Shown here: positions 1,037 to 36,500 of the stretch, in pieces
How positions within the stretch are numbered: the first letter of the stretch is position 1
Layout: each line of letters begins with the position of its first letter
DNA from: Spraguea lophii
Taxonomy: Eukaryota; Microsporidia; Spragueidae
Length of the DNA stretch: 38,300 nucleotides
Direction of reading: 5' to 3'
Assembly (NCBI GenBank): GCA_001887945.1
Contig: LDOQ01000018.1
Location: 1-38,300 of the forward strand
The notes under the pieces: generated by a model
What the model was told of the DNA's origin: nothing
What the model saw: the letters and a program-made list of their open reading frames with translations, nothing else
Databases searched by the model: none
Program-made: the position numbers and the translations under genes

Positions 1037-2188
1037 ATGTTAGAATTTTTAGAAATAAGAAAACGAACGGAAAACATGAAAGGATACAAATATACGTGCA
1101 CTGATAAATCTATACTAGCTAATTATATATTGAAATATTATTGGAACTATGTTATTGAATTTATACCATTATGGATTGCACCGAATCTCCTTACTCTTAT
1201 TGGATTACTTATAATGTTAGCCACAGTTATTATTAACTTATTCTATTCTATTGATCTTGATGGTAACGTACCCACTTTCATTTTTTTGTTAAATGGAATA
1301 TCTCTTTTTCTTTATTCCACATTCGATTGTATCGATGGAAAACATGCCCGCCGAACAAAATCAAGCTCTTCACTGGGTCAGATGTTTGATCATGGCGTAG
1401 ATTCATTAGTAAGCTCTTTAACCGCAATACTGATAGCACAATCAACAGCGTTGGGTATTGGTATGAATAAGTTTATGTTTCTATTCTCTTTTCTTATTGG
1501 ATTTTACACAGTAACAATAGATGAATATTTTACCCACAGTTTTTATTTGGGATATATCAATGGACCAACAGAAGGAATAATATTTGGATCTATTGCACAG
1601 ATAATAGTATTTTTTACTGGTCCAGAACTTTTCAAATCATTCAAAGCATATACAATATGCGATTATTTTTCATTTATTCCTTATAGACTCACTAATTTAG
1701 AAATTGTTGGTATAATCTTCATATCAACTACATATATTTCTTCCACCATTTCTACTATGATGAATAAGAAAAAAGGTTCCGTGTTTGATGTATTACTTCA
1801 TTCTACCACACCCTTGATTCTATTCTTGTCAACCATTCTTTATTATTTTAGATTTATTGAGACTAATTACTCCTCATATATTTATATTATGATATTCATC
1901 AATTTGATGCTTAATTTCAGTCTTATGAACATTCTTATAATTTTTGCGCATCAAACAAGATCAGATGTTATTTATTACACACCAATGTTTTACGTTTTTG
2001 TTTGTTCATCATTTTTAGTCCATTTTTTGACATATGAATTGAGTATTATAGTGTTGGTATTTTTTACTATCATTTCAATATTTATATATTTTTCTGTTGT
2101 TTATGAAATAATTGATGCAGTAAGTAAGCATTTGAAAATATATTGTTTTACATTAGAAATAAGAAAACAAAGCAAAAGAAAAGAATAG
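1037..2188 (+). CDS. EPT1: CDP-alcohol phosphotransferase (ethanolamine/choline phosphotransferase)
   Basis: 383-residue polytopic membrane protein, predicted to transfer phosphoethanolamine or phosphocholine from the CDP-alcohol to diacylglycerol in the ER (last step of the Kennedy pathway). The family signature DxxDGxxAR(x8)GxxxDxxxD is complete: D97, D100, G101, A104, R105, G114, D118 and D122, so the catalytic aspartates are present. Many hydrophobic segments follow, and the length matches the roughly 390 residues of yeast EPT1/CPT1. The chosen start has CCT three bases upstream; a second in-frame Met at residue 14 is possible. Ethanolamine versus choline specificity cannot be told from sequence. 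The gene symbol is by family. Confidence 0.9.
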   Translation: MLEFLEIRKRTENMKGYKYTCTDKSILANYILKYYWNYVIEFIPLWIAPNLLTLIGLLIMLATVIINLFYSIDLDGNVPTFIFLLNGISLFLYSTFDCIDGKHARRTKSSSSLGQMFDHGVDSLVSSLTAILIAQSTALGIGMNKFMFLFSFLIGFYTVTIDEYFTHSFYLGYINGPTEGIIFGSIAQIIVFFTGPELFKSFKAYTICDYFSFIPYRLTNLEIVGIIFISTTYISSTISTMMNKKKGSVFDVLLHSTTPLILFLSTILYYFRFIETNYSSYIYIMIFINLMLNFSLMNILIIFAHQTRSDVIYYTPMFYVFVCSSFLVHFLTYELSIIVLVFFTIISIFIYFSVVYEIIDAVSKHLKIYCFTLEIRKQSKRKE

Positions 2189-2491: not shown

Positions 2492-3100
2492 ATGTTTAGT
2501 AATATTACTTCGTCGAGAACGCTTCTTAAGAAATTAATATATCTTGAAAAAAGTTTTCTTGAAAATTACATAAGCAATGAAACACTTGAAAAATATCTCA
2601 AACATATAAGAAATAATATATTGGAACATAAAATAAATATTAAAAAAGTTGAAAGTGTTATGAATGATTATTTAGCATCCATGATAATAATTGAAAGATT
2701 AGAAGCTACTATAGCTACAAATATAAAAATTGAGGAACAAGTACAATCTTTGGTGGCAAAATTTATAAGTTTTTCAGAAAAAGCATCATTTGAAGTTATA
2801 AATTACATAGATGAAACAGCACTGGCAAGTAAGAATGATTCAATAAAAACAACATTAAAAGTAACCCAAGCACATGACAGCTATATATTATTTAAGAAAA
2901 GAAAAAACTTCTCATCTCAAGCCGTCAATAAACTAAAAAAATGGATTATTCAGAATAAAAAAAATCCGTACCCAACCAATGAGAAGAAATTACAACTATG
3001 TTTAGAAACCGGTTTAGAACCCAAACAAATTAACAACTGGTTTATTAATGCAAGAAGAAGACTTCTTAACACGTCTTCTCCGGATAACGACATTGATTAA
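2492..3100 (+). CDS. TALE-class homeodomain protein
   Basis: 202 residues. The C-terminal part, residues about 135-193, is a homeodomain with recognition helix [13 protein letters not shown] (residues 178-190), including the conserved W-F-N-R core. The loop between helices 1 and 2 contains NPYP (residues 158-161), the three-residue extension that defines TALE homeodomains. The N-terminal 130 residues are helical and Lys/Glu-rich and match nothing I know. TALE proteins are sequence-specific DNA-binding factors, and microsporidia carry a small set of homeobox genes, some compared to fungal mating-type HD proteins. No partner homeodomain gene lies in this window. Start supported by ACC immediately upstream (ACCATATG). 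Confidence 0.88.
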
Positions 3101-4778: not shown

Positions 4779-4884
4779 AAAAGTAGCTTTAAATTAAAAC
4801 AAAAATAATATTTAAAAATATTAAAAAAGTACAACTATAATTTTCGATTGTTAGAGGGAATAATAATATCTCAGAAATGAATTA

Positions 4885-5039
4885 TACAAAATTCCAACAT
4901 TTCGGAACATAAGGTAAGATGAAATTAATACATAACTGTAGCAAAACTAATTAGTATAAATTTAAATATATTTTCGACTTAAATTTCATTGGCCACTGTA
5001 GATCAGGGTCACAGGAAACTTCTATAAAAAAGTTTCATT
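4885..5039 (+). mobile_element. SINE-like repeat, 3' fragment (copy F)
   Basis: About 155 bp matching only the 3' third of the dispersed repeat. It contains a stretch close to CATAAGGTAAGATGAAATTAA, equivalent to 8967-8985 and 36013-36033, and TGTAGCAAAACTAATTAG, shared with the fragment near 36390. It ends with the tail hairpin GAAACTT/AAGTTTC (5015-5036). The tRNA-like head is absent, so the copy is 5'-truncated. Confidence 0.7.
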
Positions 5040-5383
5040 TTTAAAAAAAGATTTATACACACAAATCATAAAAAACATATGAAACCAGTTAAAAATCTAT
5101 TTAAAAACAAAGAAAATCAATAGAAGTGGAAATTTAAAAAATTATATAAAAGAATAATTTTATTTATACATAAAAAATACTCATTTGCCTCTCTATTAGA
5201 ATTATTAAAAGTTAATTAATAAATTATTTCTTTTCAAATAATTTATTTTATATCTTTTTTTGAAATCTAATATGTCATTTTATTTATTTTATTGTCAGAG
5301 AAAGAAAAGTTATTTAAAATTTTAAAAAAAGATAGAAAAAGGTTAATAAATTATTTTTATCCTGTCACTGAAAGTAAGTTTAT

Positions 5384-7076: not shown

Positions 7077-8573
7077 TTAATAGCTTCTACCAAAAAGGCC
7101 ATCGCTTTTGGCTTCTTTATCGCATTTTATGCATTTTTCTCCAGAATATTTTTTATTTTCTAATGGGATGCACAATGATTTAGCACCCATACTCACCACT
7201 TCGCCATTTTCATCGTGTATTGTACTGCTCTTTCTTATATCATCATCACAATCAGGATCTTGGCACCAAGGAACTAATAACATTTTTTTATCTTCTATCG
7301 CTGTCATAAATTCTTCCCAGCTGTTGGTTCTAACAATCTTACTATCACGCTCTTTTTTAGCAATTTCAAACATAGACTGATGTATTATATCTAATTCCTT
7401 ACTCAGTAATTCTCCAATATTTTCTCTTTTCTCTGATCTTTTATTTTGATTAAATCTTGTGTAAAGCATAACATTTCCATTTTTCAAATCTTTTGGTCCA
7501 ATTTCTAAACGTATTGGTACACCTCTTATTTCCCAATGATTAAATTTATAACCAGGTTGTACATTTAATTTAGAATCAAAATATACTCTTATGTTATTTT
7601 TCTTTAGTTCCTGTTCTATTCCATCAATATATTCAAAGAGTTTTTTATTTGCCTCTTCGTTATTTTTAATTCCACATGGCACGATTACCACTTGTATTTG
7701 TGAAACTCTTGGTGGCATAACCATACCTTTATCATCACCATGTACCATAACCATTACACCGATTGTACGTGTAGTTATTCCCCATGAATTTTGAAATACA
7801 TATTCATCTGTATTTTGGTCATTTACTTTGATATCAAACATTTTAGAGAAGTTTTGGCCTAAAAAATGGGATGTTGCTGCTTGTACTCCTCTTCCAGATT
7901 GTGGAATAAATGCTTCAATTGTTGTTGTAAATTCTGCTCCACCAAATTTTTCATTTTCGGATTTTATTCCAGGAATCACTGGAACTGCTAACCATTCTTC
8001 ATATATTTTTTTGTAGAGATTTAAAATATCAAATACCTCTTCTACAGCTTCTTCCTTTGTTAAAAATGCACTATGTCCCTCTTGCCATAAAAATTCTCGT
8101 CCTCTGATAAAAGGTAGAGTATTCTTTACCTCCCATCTTAAAACATTACACCACTGATTAAGTCTCAATGGTAAATCCCTATGACTTTTTAGCCATTTAG
8201 AGTATGATGGATACATTATGGTCTCCGATGTAGGACGTATAGCAACTGGTTCTGCTATATCTTCATCTCCACATTTCGTGATCCATGCTAATTCGGGAGC
8301 AAAATTTTCAATATGTTTTTTCTCTTTCTCAATTGAAGACTTTGTTACCAACATAGGAAAATAACATTCTTCTACACCTCTTGCATCTATTTCTTTTGTG
8401 AAAAATTCTTTTATTACCTTCCAAATATAATATCCATTAGGTCTCATGATATAACATCCTTTTATATCGTAATAATCTACCAGTTCGGCTTTAATAACAA
8501 CCTGTTGATACCATTCTGGAAAATTTTCTTCTTTTTTCACAGACATACCGAATCTTTGTTCATCTGTATTCAT
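7077..8573 (-). CDS. PRS1: prolyl-tRNA synthetase, cytosolic eukaryotic/archaeal type
   Basis: 498 residues, class II synthetase charging tRNA-Pro. Visible are the motif 1/2 region RPTSETIMYPSYSKWLKSHR and NVLRWEVKNTLPFIRGREFLW, and the ATP-binding motif 3 region with MVHGDDKGMVMPPR. After these comes the ProRS anticodon-binding domain with RGVPIRLEIGPKDL. The C-terminal zinc-binding domain ends with CIKCDKEAKSDGLFGRSY; a terminal Tyr is typical of this class. There is no fused Ybak-like or GluRS domain. Start supported by CCCAAATG on the minus strand. The 5' flank is unusual: a SINE-like element begins only about 60 bp upstream, on the opposite strand. Confidence 0.97.
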   Translation of the reverse strand: MNTDEQRFGMSVKKEENFPEWYQQVVIKAELVDYYDIKGCYIMRPNGYYIWKVIKEFFTKEIDARGVEECYFPMLVTKSSIEKEKKHIENFAPELAWITKCGDEDIAEPVAIRPTSETIMYPSYSKWLKSHRDLPLRLNQWCNVLRWEVKNTLPFIRGREFLWQEGHSAFLTKEEAVEEVFDILNLYKKIYEEWLAVPVIPGIKSENEKFGGAEFTTTIEAFIPQSGRGVQAATSHFLGQNFSKMFDIKVNDQNTDEYVFQNSWGITTRTIGVMVMVHGDDKGMVMPPRVSQIQVVIVPCGIKNNEEANKKLFEYIDGIEQELKKNNIRVYFDSKLNVQPGYKFNHWEIRGVPIRLEIGPKDLKNGNVMLYTRFNQNKRSEKRENIGELLSKELDIIHQSMFEIAKKERDSKIVRTNSWEEFMTAIEDKKMLLVPWCQDPDCDDDIRKSSTIHDENGEVVSMGAKSLCIPLENKKYSGEKCIKCDKEAKSDGLFGRSY

Positions 8574-8635
8574 TTGGGTTAAAAATTAAAAATATTTTTA
8601 ATATAAAAAAAGAGATAATGCAGTAATAAAGAATT

Positions 8636-9103
8636 CTCGCTTGGTCTAATAGCCGTGGGATGATGATCAAATCCCAAGCCCGACGTGTTTGAACCCCTCA
8701 TCCCGAAAAATTTTTAAATAATAATAAAAGGAAGAAGAGAAAAGAAAAAGGTTGTTGAGTGGGTGAGAGTTCGATAGTGCAGCATTAGCTGTGACTTGTA
8801 TGACGATCCCACTACTAAACTAAGTAGTTTTTGGTTGATGTAATTGCAATCCTTGTATTGATTTGTGACTCGGCCGATACTACGTCAAAAAAAAGGTTAG
8901 GAACCTGCGAAAAGCTGGGAGGGATGCTGACGTGCACTATATACAAAAACCTTAACACTTTAGACCATAAGATAAGAAGAGATTAATGTATATATATATA
9001 ATGAAGTAAGTTGTATAAGTTCAAATGTGCATTCTGAACCAAAAATCATAGACCACGGTAGGTCGCAACCGACCAGGAAACTTCTATAAATAAAAGTTTC
9101 ATT
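8636..9103 (+). mobile_element. SINE-like repeat, near full-length (copy A)
   Basis: About 465 bp that aligns along its length with 35687-36145 (+) and 32330-32780 (-). The head is tRNA-like: TTGGTCTAATAGC in the A-box position and GTTTGAACCC (about 8687-8696) in the B-box position, with a GGGAT/ATCCC pairing between them. An A/G-rich stretch follows, then a conserved body containing the perfect hairpin ACTACT(aaacta)AGTAGT, then TTGATTTGTGACTCGGC and CTGGGAGG blocks. The end has a GGTCG/CGACC hairpin and the tail hairpin GAAACTT(n10)AAGTTTC at 9077-9100. No ORF. It lies between the ProRS start and U6. Alternative: a multicopy structured non-coding RNA gene. Confidence 0.75.
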
Positions 9104-9227
9104 AAAAAAATGCAGCAACAAAGAAAAATTTATTAAATTTCAGTCATACAAAAAAATTTTTTTTGATATAATATTTTTTCATCATAATTTTCTATTTTTA
9201 ATTTATTTGTTTTTGAAAAATTTACCC

Positions 9228-9338
9228 CAGCGGTTTCCGCACTACTTGGTTTGGAACAACACAGAGAAGATTAGCATGGCCCCTGCGCAAGGATGACATG
9301 TATTCTTGAGAGATGCCATGACGTAGGTCATGGCTTTT
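9228..9338 (+). ncRNA. U6: U6 spliceosomal snRNA
   Basis: Contains the near-invariant U6 core: TTGGAAC, the ACAGAGA box, GATTAGCATGG (the AGC triad region) and CCCCTGCGCAAGGATGAC leading into the internal stem-loop. The 5' end is set by the small hairpin GCGG-TTT-CCGC near 9230-9240 and is accurate to only a few bases. The 3' end is a T-run (9335-9338), a Pol III terminator. Unusually, an 8-bp perfect hairpin, GCCATGAC-GTAG-GTCATGGC, occupies 9315-9334 just before the T-run, where most U6 RNAs end in an unstructured U-rich tail. U6 pairs with U4 and U2 and forms the catalytic centre of the spliceosome. Confidence 0.95.
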
Positions 9339-10810: not shown

Positions 10811-11243
10811 ATCATCAAAAGTTGTTCTTGTTATTTGTAGTCTACTATTGTTTGAAGATATCGTTTCTTCAAAAGATAAATAATTTGTATTAATTAATTT
10901 TATTATATATATAAATTAATCTCATCTTACTTTATCTTTATATTGTTATGATTTTTTGTATAATGTAATCCTCATTCTTTCATTCTTAATCGATTAGAAT
11001 CTCCTTCATGTCATAGCGTTAACCAGGTTATCAATCTATACACAGATTATAATTATATTAACTAAGTCCTATGTTGTTCTGGTAGTGGTGAAATCGTATA
11101 GGTCATACTCGTGTCACACTATTGAATCTTAACAAACACAATTGCTTTCTTTTCTCCTTCTATTTAACTGGTTTCTTTGATTTTTTTCTGTACGGGAAAG
11201 CTCTAACCCGTCAGGTTTAAGATCTGGTTATCACATCACAACC
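10811..11243 (-). mobile_element. SINE-like repeat, diverged near full-length (copy D)
   Basis: On the minus strand this reads a tRNA-like head with GACGGGTTAGAGCTTTCCCG in the B-box position, then an A/G-rich stretch (GAAGGAGAAAAGAAAG). The body keeps the spacing of the other copies, including AAGTAAGATGAGATTAAT. The tail hairpin is eroded. Divergence from copies A-C is high, so the boundaries are approximate. It lies between the Arp-like and Pam16 genes. Confidence 0.55.
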
Positions 11244-24703: not shown

Positions 24704-25345
24704 GGATGGTAAAAATAAAATAAATATATTTATAATGAATAAAACATAAAAGATAATAGAATAAAATAGATAATAAGAGATAATATAATAAATATATTTA
24801 TATTGGATAGAATAGGGTAGAAGATACTTTTAATTATTTTTTCAGAAGGTATATTTATCCCAATTATTGTAAATGATAACAAAATATATATTATTGAAGA
24901 TATAATATTTTTTAAAAAATTTTTAATATAGAAGATTAGAAATAACAGAAGAAAATGCGAATAGAATAGGAATTTTATAACATAATTATTTTGTGACTAA
25001 ATTATCATCATACTAGAAAGAAAGAGTAATCTTTCATTAAAGATTAGAAAATGGTCTTTGCCTCCATAAGAATATATCCAATACTATAAAATATAAAATG
25101 ATAATAATATATAGGTATAATAAAACCAATTAATATAAATATATTAAATTTTTTAAAAAACTGTATTCTTTAGATGATGATAAATTACTATATAATTTTA
25201 TTTGTAGTTAAATTCTTATTACTTAAAGGTTTAATAGAATCTAAATTAATTAATTCATATATAATAAAAAGTACAAATAAAAAAATATATTTCTCTATAA
25301 AGACATAACAATTTTTTCTTATATTAAAAATATTTTATTTTTTTG
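24704..25345. other. intergenic region, nothing coding
   Basis: About 640 bp. It contains an A/G-rich run (24740-24820) and a perfect 8-bp hairpin TAATCTTT-CATT-AAAGATTA at 25028-25047. No gene, tRNA box or C-rich start seen. Confidence 0.5.
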
Positions 25346-25373
25346 AATGAAACTTTTATTTATAGAAATTTCC
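25346..25373 (-). mobile_element. SINE-like repeat, 28-bp 3' terminal fragment (copy I)
   Basis: On the minus strand GGAAATTTCTATAAATAAAAGTTTCATT differs at one position from the terminal 28 bp of copies A and C, including the tail hairpin. It begins 5 bp after the Sec15-like stop codon, in the same orientation as that gene. So short a fragment is consistent with an extremely 5'-truncated insertion, or with a functional 3' hairpin shared by gene and repeat. Confidence 0.6.
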
Positions 25374-25378
25374 TCTTT

Positions 25379-28133: not shown

Positions 28134-28300
28134 ATATTTAATAATAAATCATAACATCAAATAATTTTTTATTATATCCGATTGTATATTTTCTTGTTTT
28201 TTATTTGTAAAAGGTTTATAGCTATAAATAATTTATTTCTAAATTAAATATCTTTTTCCTTTGTTTTACATACAAATATAGAATTTTTTTAAAATTTTTA

Positions 28301-28360
28301 AATGAAACTTTTACTCATAGAAGCTTTCTCGTAGATTGTTGTCTATTGTGATTGATGGCG
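28301..28360 (-). mobile_element. SINE-like repeat, short 3' fragment (copy H)
   Basis: On the minus strand the end reads GAAAGCTTCTATGAGTAAAAGTTTCATT, the tail hairpin with a few changes, preceded by a ACAACAATCTACGAG-type remnant of the pre-tail region. The rest of the element is absent or unrecognisable. Confidence 0.55.
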
Positions 28361-32173: not shown

Positions 32174-32329
32174 ACCTTCTGATTCTTAAATAAAATATTT
32201 TACTTCAATTTCGTTTAGGTAATAGATAGTTGGAAAATTTTTGTCTTTTCTAATGGAAAACCAAAAAGCTTTATTTAAGTTAAAATAGAATCTATTCTAG
32301 TTAAATGATATTTTATCTAATTTTCTTTA

Positions 32330-32780
32330 AATGAAACTTTTATTTATAGAAGTTTCTTGCCCGGCTGTAAATTTATTTTGGTTTACAACCTTTGGTTCCT
32401 AAAGTACATTTAAATTTGTATTAATTGGTTTTGCTATAGATAAGATAAACATCAATTTCATGTTACCTTATTTTCCAGAGCGTTAGGGCTTTGTATATGA
32501 TACGCGTCACCGCCCAGCTTCCTAGATACTCTCAACCTCTTTTTTGACATAATATTGGCTGAGTTACAAATCAATCCAGGAATTGCAATTACACCAGCTA
32601 AACACTACTTTAATCTAACAGTAAAGACATCATCCACGACATAACCGATTCTATACTACCGAACTTTCACCCATTCAACAGTATTCTTCTCTTCTACATT
32701 TTTTTTGAAAATTCTTCTTGATGAGAGATTCGGATCCGCCAGGCCTGGACTTTGGTTAGCACCTCATGATCATATCATAT
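32330..32780 (-). mobile_element. SINE-like repeat, near full-length (copy C)
   Basis: About 450 bp on the minus strand. The head has GGATCCGAATCTC in the B-box position and GATCATGAGGTGCTAACC in the A-box position. The body includes AGATTAAAGTAGTGTTTAGC, TTGATTTGTAACTCAGCC, AAGCTGGGCGGTGACG, CCCTAACGCTCTGG and GGTAACATGAAATTGATG, each with an equivalent in copies A and B. The tail hairpin (32333-32356) is identical to that of copy A: GAAACTTCTATAAATAAAAG then TTTC. It lies 157 bp downstream of SF3B1. The strong match of the 3' end confirms the family. Confidence 0.75.
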
Positions 32781-34284
32781 ATTTTATTCGAAGAATAATT
32801 TTTATCTTAAAATAAGAAAAGATAGAAAGTTCTTTAAACAAAATATATGATATGTTTTTAATTAAAGTAATCTTTATGTTAAACATAATTACTATATTTT
32901 ATTAAGAATTAAGTTTAATTAATAATTAAATTATTGTTTATTCTTAATTAAAAATAATAAATTTTATCTTATATAGTAAATTAAATTTTATTATACATTC
33001 TTTTTTTAAAAAAAGTAATTTCTATTTATATATGCTTTCCTATTATCTATATTATACATTAGATCTATCTTTTGACTAAAAGAGGAACTTTTTTCATATT
33101 TGTTAGTTATTATAGTATATACATTAATCTCATCTTATTTTATGCTCTGAATATTAAAATTTCAGGTATGATACACATTACAAACATTTTTCCTTTTTGC
33201 GGGATCTTGAATTTCTTTAATAGCATAATACTTACAGAAATTAGTATTTAATATATGTTCTTTCATAAGACCACTCAGACGTTCGGTTAATCTATCAACG
33301 AGGTTGTATACAAGTAAGTAATACTATGGTATCATCATCTAAAGTGATATTAAGGATGGACTAAACTCGTTAATCCCAAATATTTTTATACAATCATTGT
33401 ATTTCTATTATTCATTCATTTTGTATGTATTATTCTTAGATAAATACATTAATATAAACGCAATAATAGTAAATCGTATAAATATTTTGTTTAATGATAT
33501 TGTTAATTTGATTATAAATCTGATAAACTATAAATATAATATCAAGAACATATATTTTTAACAGGCTTGTAATATTGATCATATTTATTCACAATTAACT
33601 CTTTTAAATATCTCTAATACATAAAAACATATCTTCATGGTGTATAACTCCGTATAAAAGTCATTATTTTAATTACAATAATCATTAAATTAGTAGTATT
33701 TATAAAACAATTGTACTTCTTATGTGCATAATACATATATATTTTATAAAATATATATTTACTACATAAATAAAATTAATGTTATCATTTCCGAATGAAT
33801 TTTTATATCCTAGCTAGATTATCTATTCTTTCATATTAATGTTACCATACGATATATTCTTTTTCAAAATGCTTTTAAATGAAATAAAATATTTTATAAA
33901 ATATTATTATCAACCACCATATATCAATTATTTTCTATTGTTGTGTATAAAATAATTACAGTATTTTATTTTATAATGTAATAAGTTATTATAATAAATA
34001 ATATTTTATAGAATGAATATAATGTTATATGACTAATATATTCCTATGTATATGTTATAATACATATAGTTTAAAGGATAATAAATTGAAATTAAGGTTT
34101 TATAATAAATAATTGAAATTAATAACAAACATTAAATGGAGAATGTTAAAAGATATAATATAGAAAAACAAAGAAGTAATAAAAGAATATAAATAATTAA
34201 ATAGACGTAAGAATACAAAGTAATTTTTAAAAATTAAATTTACTAACTTGAATAGATTTTATTCAAGAAAGGATCTTAATTCAC
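32781..34284. other. long intergenic region with an old repeat copy
   Basis: Apart from the partial repeat at 33110-33380 (listed separately) it is AT-rich with no gene. Near 32885-32955 a cluster of TTAATTAATAATTAA palindromic words is present. From 33400 to 34250 I see only AT-rich, weakly palindromic DNA (for example ATTTTATAAAATATATATTT near 33745). Confidence 0.5.
33110..33380 (-). mobile_element. SINE-like repeat, diverged partial copy (copy E)
   Basis: On the minus strand the 3' half carries AATGTGTATCATACCTGA and CATAAAATAAGATGAGATTA plus ATGTATATA, equivalent to body sequence of copies A-C. The 5' half is only vaguely alignable and no head or tail hairpin is clear. Boundaries are approximate. 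Confidence 0.5.
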
Positions 34285-35686: not shown

Positions 35687-36145
35687 GCCCGTTTGGTCAA
35701 GTGGTTGTCGGGTAATAAATAAATCCCAAGCCTAGGGGTTCGAATCCCTTATCTAGAAGAATTTTCGAAAAAAAAGATAGAAGAAGAGAAGAGAAAACGT
35801 TACTGAGCAGGTATGGTTTAATAGCGCAGCATTATTTGTGCAGTGTACGACGGCCCGCTACTAGATTAAAGTAGTGTTCAGCTGATATAACTGCAACATT
35901 GTATTGATTTGTGGCTCGGCTAATATTATGCCAAGAAAGACATTAGGAATCTCTGAAAAACTGGGAGGCGGATGGTGATATGTATCATACGCAAACCCCA
36001 ACGCTTTGGAGAATAAGCTAAGATGAGATTAATGATATATGTGGTGAAACTAGTTAATACAAATGTAGATTGCTTTAGGAGCCAAAGGTCTCAGATCTTG
36101 TACGCTGCAACCGACCCGGAGACTTAAAATAAATAAAAGCCTTAT
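35687..36145 (+). mobile_element. SINE-like repeat, best-preserved tRNA-like head (copy B)
   Basis: About 460 bp. The head has TGGTCAAGTGG (35694-35704), close to the Pol III A box. It also has a perfect B box GGTTCGAATCC (35737-35747) inside a T-arm-like AGGGG-TTCGAAT-CCCTT. No acceptor stem pairs across the head, so it is not an intact tRNA. The body aligns with copies A and C (CTACT-agatta-AAGTAG hairpin; TTGATTTGTGGCTCGGC; CTGGGAGG; AACGCTTTGGAGAATAAG; AAGATGAGATTAATG). The tail hairpin is eroded (GAGACTT..AAAGCCTT). It may be a transcriptionally competent copy by its promoter. Confidence 0.75.
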
Positions 36146-36319
36146 AAAAAATATTTAATCTGTATATGTTTCTTAAAATTGATTTACTCAAAATCCTTTC
36201 CATTACAATAAGATTACTATTAAATAAAATTTATATCTATTATATGAAAATGATTTTAAACAACAGAAATTAATATACGGAATTAAATAAATTTTATTTG
36301 TTACGTGATGATAAAAACT

Positions 36320-36500
36320 ACAATGTGCATTATACACAAAATAATAACAGTCTAAAGCATAATGTAAGATGAAATTAATGCATATTTGTAGCAAAACTAA
36401 TTAGTTCAAATTTAAATAATATTTGGAACCAAAAGACATATACAATAATAGTCAGAGACTGACAGGAATGCTTTGATTATAAAAAGAATGATGTTTGAAA
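36320..36500 (+). mobile_element. SINE-like repeat, 3' fragment (copy G)
   Basis: About 180 bp matching the 3' part of the family: ACAATGTGCATTATACACAA, TCTAAAGCATAATGTAAGAT, TTGTAGCAAAACTAATTAG and GGAACCAAAAG. The tail is diverged. It lies 175 bp after copy B, in the same orientation, and shares the TGTAGCAAAACTAATTAG word with copy F. Confidence 0.6.

What the first reader, a model, noticed from the sequence alone, without database searches (positions are those of the whole stretch)
35687..36145. A tRNA-headed SINE-like family in a microsporidian genome
Sequence shows: three near full-length copies (8636-9103, 35687-36145, 32330-32780 reversed), two diverged ones (10811-11243, 33110-33380) and four 3' fragments in 38 kb, all non-coding. 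Copy B has an A-box-like TGGTCAAGTGG and a perfect B box GGTTCGAATCC about 32 bp later. Knowledge: this plan (Pol III tRNA head, unrelated body, specific tail, no ORF) defines SINEs. I am not aware of a well-described SINE family in Microsporidia, but cannot check. Inference: this is a retroposon family mobilised in trans.
Basis: partly seen in the sequence, partly recalled or inferred. Interest (0 to 1): 0.88.

Follow-up and report, generated by a model that had tools for sequence, protein, structure and literature searches.

The report
A SINE family in a microsporidian
A tiny-genomed intracellular parasite carries hundreds of copies or pieces of a short selfish DNA element that has tRNA-type promoter motifs at its front and shares its tail, and most likely its copying machine, with a larger mobile element in the same genome.

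Summary
The repeat is genome-wide: the 5.27-Mb assembly holds 235 matches to its 3' tail (at most 1 mismatch; reversed-pattern control 0) and 114 to its head (at most 3 mismatches; control 0). The 482-bp consensus has A and B boxes 44 bp apart, no ORF beyond chance and a poly(A) tail. Exact target-site duplications of 12-17 bp flank 21 of 30 copies examined, against 0 of 900 mismatched flank pairs. The three long window copies are old (about 76-80% identical to the consensus), but 26 of those 30 copies are 95-99% identical, so activity was recent. I found the likely partner LINE: a 49-55-bp block of its 3' UTR (about 84-90% identical) recurs near the SINE's 3' end, and 5 of 7 of its copies have duplications too. 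Source tRNA, LINE clade and transcription are unresolved. In the paper searches made, I saw only a one-line 'SINE 0.18%' table entry for Nosema bombycis. This is a new SINE family in a group where I found none characterised: a new member of a known kind.

The parts
8636..9108 (+). SINE copy A, full length (old)
   Evidence: nhmmer E 1e-123 (profile included it), BLAST 71% to copy B; GC 0.37, 90 differences in 460 aligned bases from consensus
8617..8633 (+). 5' target-site duplication of copy A (AATGCAGTAATAAAGAA)
   Evidence: 15 of 17 bases match 9109-9125; random flank pairs reach this score in 0.75% of 2000 trials
9109..9125 (+). 3' target-site duplication of copy A (AATGCAGCAACAAAGAA)
35687..36150 (+). 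SINE copy B, full length (old): the finding
   Evidence: nhmmer E 1e-120 (profile included it); 35687-36145 was the query that found the genome-wide family; 75.6% identical to consensus
35694..35704 (+). A-box-like motif TGGTCAAGTGG of copy B
   Evidence: matches TRGYNNARNNG (recalled consensus), 43 bp start to start before the B box
35737..35747 (+). B box GGTTCGAATCC of copy B
   Evidence: exact match to GGTTCGANTCC (recalled consensus)
32321..32785 (-). SINE copy C, nearly full length (old, eroded head)
   Evidence: nhmmer E 7e-109 (profile included it), BLAST 69% to A; no convincing duplication
10836..11243 (-). strongly diverged SINE copy
   Evidence: nhmmer E 9e-27
33117..33232 (-). short diverged SINE fragment
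   Evidence: nhmmer E 1e-5, profile positions 250-369 only
4884..5048 (+). 5'-truncated SINE (3' third)
   Evidence: nhmmer E 5e-20
36323..36486 (+). 5'-truncated SINE (3' third), about 170 bp downstream of copy B
   Evidence: nhmmer E 2e-18
25339..25374 (-). tail-only piece (last ~36 bp)
   Evidence: BLAST 94% over 36 bp, E 1e-10; not reported by nhmmer
28295..28338 (-). tail-only piece
   Evidence: BLAST 82% over 44 bp, E 7e-7; not reported by nhmmer

Best explanation
This is a SINE family with a tRNA-type promoter head. The internal A and B boxes would drive RNA polymerase III transcription of a ~480-nt RNA (inferred). Its last ~100 nt are homologous to the 3' UTR of a resident LINE with an APE-like endonuclease, with an internal deletion, and are predicted to fold into three hairpins ahead of a poly(A) tail. 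The LINE protein would recognise this shared 3' end, nick DNA at an AT-rich site and reverse-transcribe the SINE RNA there (target-primed reverse transcription), leaving 12-17-bp target-site duplications and many 5'-truncated copies. Shown by sequence: copy number, promoter boxes, tail, duplications, shared LINE 3' end, recent copies. Inferred: transcription, recognition, mobilisation in trans.
For: Genome-wide family: 235 tail and 114 head matches, 0 control matches. Of 30 copies aligned 26 are 95-99% identical to consensus. Target-site duplications (score 11 or more) in 21 of 30, control 0 of 900; exact, 12-17 bp. A plus B boxes 43-44 bp apart in 28 of 30. Stop-free runs no longer than in shuffled sequence; flanks mostly unrelated. 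LINE: a 676-bp probe of its 3' end has 24 hits that cover only a 49-55-bp stretch at 84-86%; 23 of these 24 lie in listed SINE copies. SINE 3' end against six LINE copies scores 65.9-82.7; 300 shuffles of the SINE end against one of them reach at most 30.7. LINE and SINE both end in an ATAAATAAAA-(G/T)TTTC-like stretch before poly(A) (by eye). Of 7 LINE copies, 5 have duplications scoring 9 or more (L134 21 bp including A's, L136 14, L135 13, L056 10, L055 9); 0 of 42 mismatched pairs do. SINE consensus and LINE ORF pieces have GC 0.43-0.47; the window has 0.226 and four host genes 0.28-0.335. 3' end fold z -3.6.
Against: No transcript data. Rfam's tRNA model does not match the head in any of 5 young copies at E up to 5. 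The best own-genome tRNA match of the consensus head (Arg-TCG, 43) barely exceeds 200 shuffled heads (max 39); for copy A the best match (Leu-TAG, 29) does not. The terminal ~30 bp match to the LINE is weak by itself (16-25; 500 shuffles mean 12.3, max 27). Covariation in the shared hairpins is weak (2 pairs with two-sided changes, reached by 53 of 500 shuffles). I found no intact LINE: the pieces seen lie on different contigs and contig ends. Nine of 30 copies show no duplication at the score; two LINE copies (L053, L057) show none convincing. Fewer LINE than SINE copies were available to examine.
Confidence: 0.93

Rival explanations
1. The repeats are short internally deleted or 5'-rearranged derivatives of the LINE itself, moved by the LINE, and the tRNA-type boxes in the head are incidental.
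For: The SINE's 3' ~100 bp is LINE-related and truncated LINE copies with similar duplications exist.
Against: In BLAST against 12 LINE-bearing loci the first ~330 bp of the SINE match only low-complexity A/T stretches or separate SINE copies lying nearby. A fixed start with A and B boxes 44 bp apart in 27 of 30 copies and 43 bp in one is not what random truncation gives. The LINE's 5' end is only partly available, so this is not fully excluded.
Confidence: 0.04
2. The SINE is mobilised by a different retroelement, and the 3' sharing with this LINE is ancient or was acquired from the SINE.
For: Other broken reverse transcriptase remnants exist: C48:24621-25244 is 40% identical to this LINE's protein, and C48:16630, C5:73895 and C56:47827 carry stops. 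The terminal match is weak.
Against: SINE and LINE copies share poly(A) tails, duplication length and 3' UTR block. The two gypsy-type elements found would not produce poly(A) tails with 12-17-bp duplications (general knowledge).
Confidence: 0.1
3. The repeats are Pol III-transcribed functional noncoding RNA genes in many copies, not transposons.
For: Promoter boxes and a stable predicted fold (nearly whole element of L030 z -2.0; 3' end z -3.6).
Confidence: 0.01

Closest known systems
Fungal tRNA-derived SINEs (Mg-SINE of Magnaporthe, SINE2-1_BG of Blumeria; passages seen in PMC3747384 and PMC5063351)
   Same: Similar length (Mg-SINE 472 bp, ca. 100 copies), tRNA-type head, listed as sharing a 3' end with a LINE
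   Different: Their listed partners are MgL/MGR583 and a Tad1 LINE in Magnaporthe and Blumeria; here the host is a microsporidian and some of the LINE's nearest database relatives are named TX1. Sequence relationship to those SINEs not tested.
L1-clade SINE/LINE pairs with a shared 3' end (ZmSINE2, ZmSINE3, TS SINE, Chlamydomonas SINEX-3_CR; passages of PMC3747384)
   Same: 3' sequence shared between SINE and LINE, with stem-loops described for the maize/sorghum group and poly(A) for the Chlamydomonas pair
   Different: Those pairs are in flowering plants and a green alga; here the LINE clade is unproven and covariation is weak.
'SINE' class line in the Nosema bombycis repeat table (28,669 bp, 0.18%; PMC3614468, passages)
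   Same: A microsporidian genome with something classed as SINE
LINEs in Microsporidia (families tabulated in PMC4202319, passages; non-LTR transcripts in Spraguea, PMC3749934, passages)
   Same: LINE-type elements in microsporidian genomes, some transcribed
   Different: The term 'sine' occurs 0 times in either main text. Relationship of their LINEs to this one not tested.

Membership tests
tRNA-type SINE | Dispersed multicopy family | tested here: met
   235 tail and 114 head matches; the 100 places listed for each spread over many contigs; controls 0
tRNA-type SINE | Short and without coding capacity | tested here: met
   482 bp; longest stop-free run 43-113 aa in 30 copies; 95% point of 500 shuffled consensuses 113
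tRNA-type SINE | Internal Pol III promoter (A and B boxes) | tested here: met
   28 of 30 copies have both motifs 43-44 bp apart; motif consensus recalled; transcription not tested
tRNA-type SINE | Head derived from an identifiable tRNA | tested here: inconclusive
   Best of 48 distinct tRNA sequences: Arg-TCG 43, Ser-GCT 41, Leu-TAG 40; 200 shuffles mean 24.5, max 39; copy A only 29; no Rfam tRNA match in 5 copies
tRNA-type SINE | Target-site duplications and simple 3' tail | tested here: met
   21 of 30, control 0 of 900; A-rich tail
SINE/LINE pair of the shared-3'-end type | SINE 3' end homologous to a LINE of the same genome | tested here: met
   extreme terminus weak on its own
SINE/LINE pair of the shared-3'-end type | Mobilisation by that LINE's protein | not testable with these tools
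   needs a biochemical or cell assay
Partner LINE: APE-type non-LTR element | APE-like endonuclease plus reverse transcriptase | tested here: inconclusive
   PF14529 18.7 bits and RVT_1 18.6 bits, both below Pfam cut-offs on a contig-end fragment; 31% identity over 99% to P0001, which passes PF14529 and PF03372
Partner LINE: L1/Tx1 clade | RT phylogeny within L1/Tx1 | tested here: inconclusive
   Only L1 ORF2p-type chains among PDB sequences match the fragment (5 distinct sequences, best E 7.6e-10), but relative P0002 matches R2 and L1 about equally; no tree built, the RT core is not at hand

The most novel reading that the evidence does not exclude
The LINE is an L1/Tx1-clade element with stringent recognition of a structured 3' end plus poly(A), so the pair would be such an L1-type SINE/LINE couple outside green plants and algae; and both partners, compositionally foreign to this very AT-rich genome (GC 0.43-0.47 against 0.23), entered the microsporidian lineage together by horizontal transfer and then radiated.
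Probability: 0.2. Interest if true: 0.7.

Novelty: new member of a known kind. Interest (0 to 1): 0.5.

Why it matters
Microsporidia are the textbook case of genome reduction, yet this ~5.3-Mb genome maintains a recently active SINE and a probable LINE partner. It gives intergenic presence/absence markers, an internal record of LINE activity, and a test of how 3' recognition by LINEs evolved outside plants and animals. If the copies are transcribed by Pol III they also affect annotation of noncoding RNA in these genomes; and near-identical copies plausibly break assemblies, since several contigs end inside SINE or LINE copies.

Tried and rejected
Targeting of Pol III genes: SINEs lie near U6 (window), 5S (L030) and RNase P RNA (L010), so I tested nearness to tRNA genes; 2 of 36 tRNAs on contigs C1-C40 (36 of the 58 matches) lie within 500 bp of one of 113 SINE intervals against 1.6 expected (intervals taken from the capped lists, some contig lengths estimated). 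Rejected.

Head as a recognisable tRNA: not supported by Rfam; no isoacceptor assigned.

Head-only pieces on C63 (L047, L048) as a second family: a search with one of them found 3 places, itself included. Probably eroded SINEs; not pursued.

Conserved RNA structure by covariation: too weak to claim.

Insertion-site motif: T at -1 in 17 of 22 (binomial 3e-4) and A at +5 in 16 of 22 (1e-3), uncorrected for the 16 positions looked at; suggestive only.

A 16-base pattern scan of viral contigs gave 17 stretches, taken as chance and not followed up. The SSU rRNA search found nothing in the assembly. One search failed on a wrong end coordinate; its ORFs were read instead. One search failed on wrong coordinates; one search used the right ORF. 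One search failed on a search term and was not repeated.

Correction made on re-checking: locus L021 holds two SINE copies on one strand, and the scripts measured the neighbour of the copy aligned. By eye the copy has a 13-bp duplication with one mismatch.

Full report
Observation. BLASTN inside the window and an nhmmer profile of 30 genomic copies plus A, B and C find the three long copies, the diverged copy at 10836-11243, a short piece at 33117-33232, and 3' pieces at 4884-5048 and 36323-36486; two tail-only pieces at 25339-25374 and 28295-28338 are seen by BLAST only. A, B and C were in the profile, so they match by construction. The reversed window gives no nhmmer hit. Copy B has the two promoter boxes exactly as described.

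Host. Of the first ten relatives of the window's prolyl-tRNA synthetase (7077-8573, minus) that carry an organism name, nine are microsporidian, at 55-61% identity (Dictyocoela muelleri 61%, Ordospora 59%, Encephalitozoon 57-58%), and one is labelled Papilio xuthus, which I take to be contamination; further down the 120 listed (of 7998) come other microsporidia, chytrids, a Perkinsus and some others. The assembly is 5,273,041 bases in 73 contigs. No SSU rRNA match was found. So the host is a microsporidian, on the evidence of one protein, without a close named relative in that list.

Copy number and age. With copy B as query, 45 matches are listed; 40 of 318 candidates were scored. The 19-bp tail occurs 235 times (116 + 119, up to 1 mismatch), none for the reversed pattern; a 37-bp head pattern occurs 114 times (42 + 72, up to 3 mismatches), control none. 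The 30 copies fetched are the best matches to copy B, itself included, not a random sample. Of these, 26 are 95.0-99.0% identical to the majority consensus; the other four, B among them, are 75.6-83.0%. The window copies A, B and C differ from the consensus at 90 of 460, 91 of 449 and 103 of 436 aligned bases, mostly G/C to A/T (64, 59 and 70). There was a recent burst on top of old copies.

Retroposition marks. Of 30 loci, 21 have an exact target-site duplication of 12-17 bp (score 11 or more) after the A-rich tail; pairing each 5' flank with another copy's 3' flank gives 0 of 900 at that score (4 at 10 or more, 8 at 9 or more, 25 at 8 or more, against 21 real ones at each). Leading A's of a duplication may belong to the tail. 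In locus L021 the script measured a second SINE copy of the same locus. A pass with a wider offset finds 22 of 30 at score 9.5 or more, 12-17 bp (no control run for it). In the window, copy A has a 17-bp duplication with 2 mismatches (0.75% of random flank pairs do as well), copy B a doubtful one (5.4%), copy C none (79%). Among the 500-bp flanks of the 30 copies 2 (5') and 3 (3') pairs are similar; four of the five trace to other SINE pieces, the pair L003/L019 (39 bp) was not traced. No copy has a stop-free run above the 95% point of shuffled consensus (113 aa).

Head. Both boxes are present 43-44 bp apart in 28 of 30 copies. Compared with 48 distinct tRNA sequences from this genome, the consensus head scores best with Arg-TCG (43), then Ser-GCT (41) and Leu-TAG (40); 200 shuffled heads reach at most 39. 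Copy B also prefers Arg-TCG (40, shuffles max 38); copy A's best is Leu-TAG at 29, within chance. Rfam's tRNA model does not match any of five young copies up to E 5, and ARAGORN and Rfam report only the tRNA-Leu gene as tRNA in the window. So the head is tRNA-like by its promoter boxes and its parent is unknown.

The partner LINE. A Pfam RVT_1 search of the genome gives 9 matches: two gypsy-like elements (L031, L033), a telomerase-like protein (two matches, L035/L038), four broken pieces on C48 (two), C5 and C56, and one LINE fragment at the left end of C72 (458 aa). Searching with that fragment gives 6 matches and led to C21, whose locus L042 carries, upstream of the match, a LINE C-terminal region and 3' UTR. 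A 676-bp probe of that end gives 41 matches (40 of 109 candidates scored): 17 LINE-type, and 24 that cover only about probe positions 489-544 at 84-86% identity. Of these 24, 23 lie in SINE copies listed; the other (C48:6445) was not checked further. SINE consensus 406-454 matches the LINE 3' UTR at 85.7-89.8% at five places (C21, C63 twice, C11, C61), and 406-464 at 77-82% at two more (L051, L053). Local alignment of the SINE's last 152 bp with six LINE copies scores 65.9-82.7; 300 mononucleotide shuffles against one of them reach at most 30.7. The LINE ends with GTATCATAAATAAAATTTTCTTATT-like sequence plus poly(A), the SINE with GATAAATAAAAGTTTCATTCGT plus poly(A); this terminal match alone is weak (16-25 against a shuffle mean of 12.3, max 27). 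By eye, the LINE has roughly 100 bp between the two shared blocks that the SINE lacks. Of seven short or 5'-truncated LINE copies with boundaries set by hand, five have duplications scoring 9 or more (L134, L136, L135, L056, L055), L053 and L057 do not; 0 of 42 mismatched pairs reach 9 (max 7.5). Both ends of C63, the left end of C11 and the end of C27 break at the same LINE position within a base or two, which suggests that near-identical LINE copies were collapsed in assembly.

LINE class. The fragment's best relative is P0001 (31% over 99%); of 49 hits four are Smittium culicis proteins named Transposon TX1 by the source, which I take to be automatic names. Among PDB sequences only L1 ORF2p-type chains match it (5 distinct sequences, best E 7.6e-10), but relative P0002 matches R2 and L1 about equally. 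Its endonuclease and RT Pfam scores are below cut-off on this partial sequence, and the C-terminal piece matches no Pfam family. The clade stays open.

Composition. SINE consensus GC 0.469, LINE ORF pieces 0.431 and 0.443, LINE 3' UTR 0.35, window 0.226, four host genes 0.28-0.335, gypsy-like ORFs 0.276 and 0.31. Both partners look compositionally foreign or recently arrived; old SINE copies drift towards A/T. Horizontal acquisition is one explanation and was not tested.

Structure. The 3' end of young copies folds into three hairpins (-23.6 kcal/mol, z -3.6, 1 of 200 shuffles as good). The first two lie in the LINE-shared block; 91.4% of 128 cells pair (35 of 500 shuffles do as well; at most 46.9% when partners are slid), but only two pairs show two-sided changes and 53 of 500 shuffles reach that. 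It is a candidate recognition element, not a proven one.

Literature. Full-text searches showed no described microsporidian SINE in the papers listed; several lists were cut (for example 20 of 271, 25 of 460, 10 of 3,332). Three mosquito-symbiont papers hold 'short interspersed'; I did not open them and presume it refers to the mosquito. The one mention found is a table line for Nosema bombycis, 'SINE - 28,669 0.18' (PMC3614468, passages). PMC4202319 (microsporidian transposons), PMC3749934 and PMC4948709 (Spraguea) hold the term 0 times in the main text (passages). The library holds only open-licence papers and supplements were not searched, so a description elsewhere is possible. [quoted passage not shown] that makes this LINE's clade worth settling.

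Verdict. A genuine SINE family with an identified probable LINE partner, recently active in a reduced genome. It is a known kind of element in a group where I found none characterised.

Noticed in passing
window 9230-9325 (+): U6 snRNA gene (Rfam RF00026, 67.6 bits) about 100 bp downstream of SINE copy A.
   Followed up: no
C72:1-1376 (L059), C63 both ends (L047, L048), C11 (L049), C27 (L052): LINE pieces sit at contig ends, four of them breaking at nearly the identical LINE position: probable collapsed near-identical LINE copies.
   Followed up: partly
L042 (C21:482-3586), about 1500-1640: One LINE's poly(A) tail is followed directly by a stretch resembling the reading frame of another LINE copy; possible LINE-into-LINE or head-to-tail arrangement (by eye).
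   Followed up: no
L042 about 3060-3090: A short TTAGG-type run (ggttaggttaggttaggg), possibly an interstitial telomere repeat (by eye).
   Followed up: no
L035/L038 (C2:66528-67271): Telomerase-like reverse transcriptase in a 1239-aa open frame with long Asn-rich insertions; RVT_1 match plus a Telomerase_RBD match below cut-off; GC 0.174.
   Followed up: no
L031, L033: Two gypsy-like LTR retrotransposon regions with separate open frames; described only.
   Followed up: no
SINE consensus and LINE ORF pieces: GC of 0.43-0.47 in a genome whose window has 0.226: the mobile pair is compositionally unlike its host.
   Followed up: partly
L030 616-734; L010 1386-1153: 5S rRNA and nuclear RNase P RNA genes lie near young SINE copies; enrichment near tRNA genes tested and not found.
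   Followed up: yes
L047 about 1225-1296 (-), L048 about 1362-1430 (+), both on C63: Two isolated ~73-bp head-like pieces (78-79% to consensus 15-89) without a SINE body beside them.
   Followed up: partly
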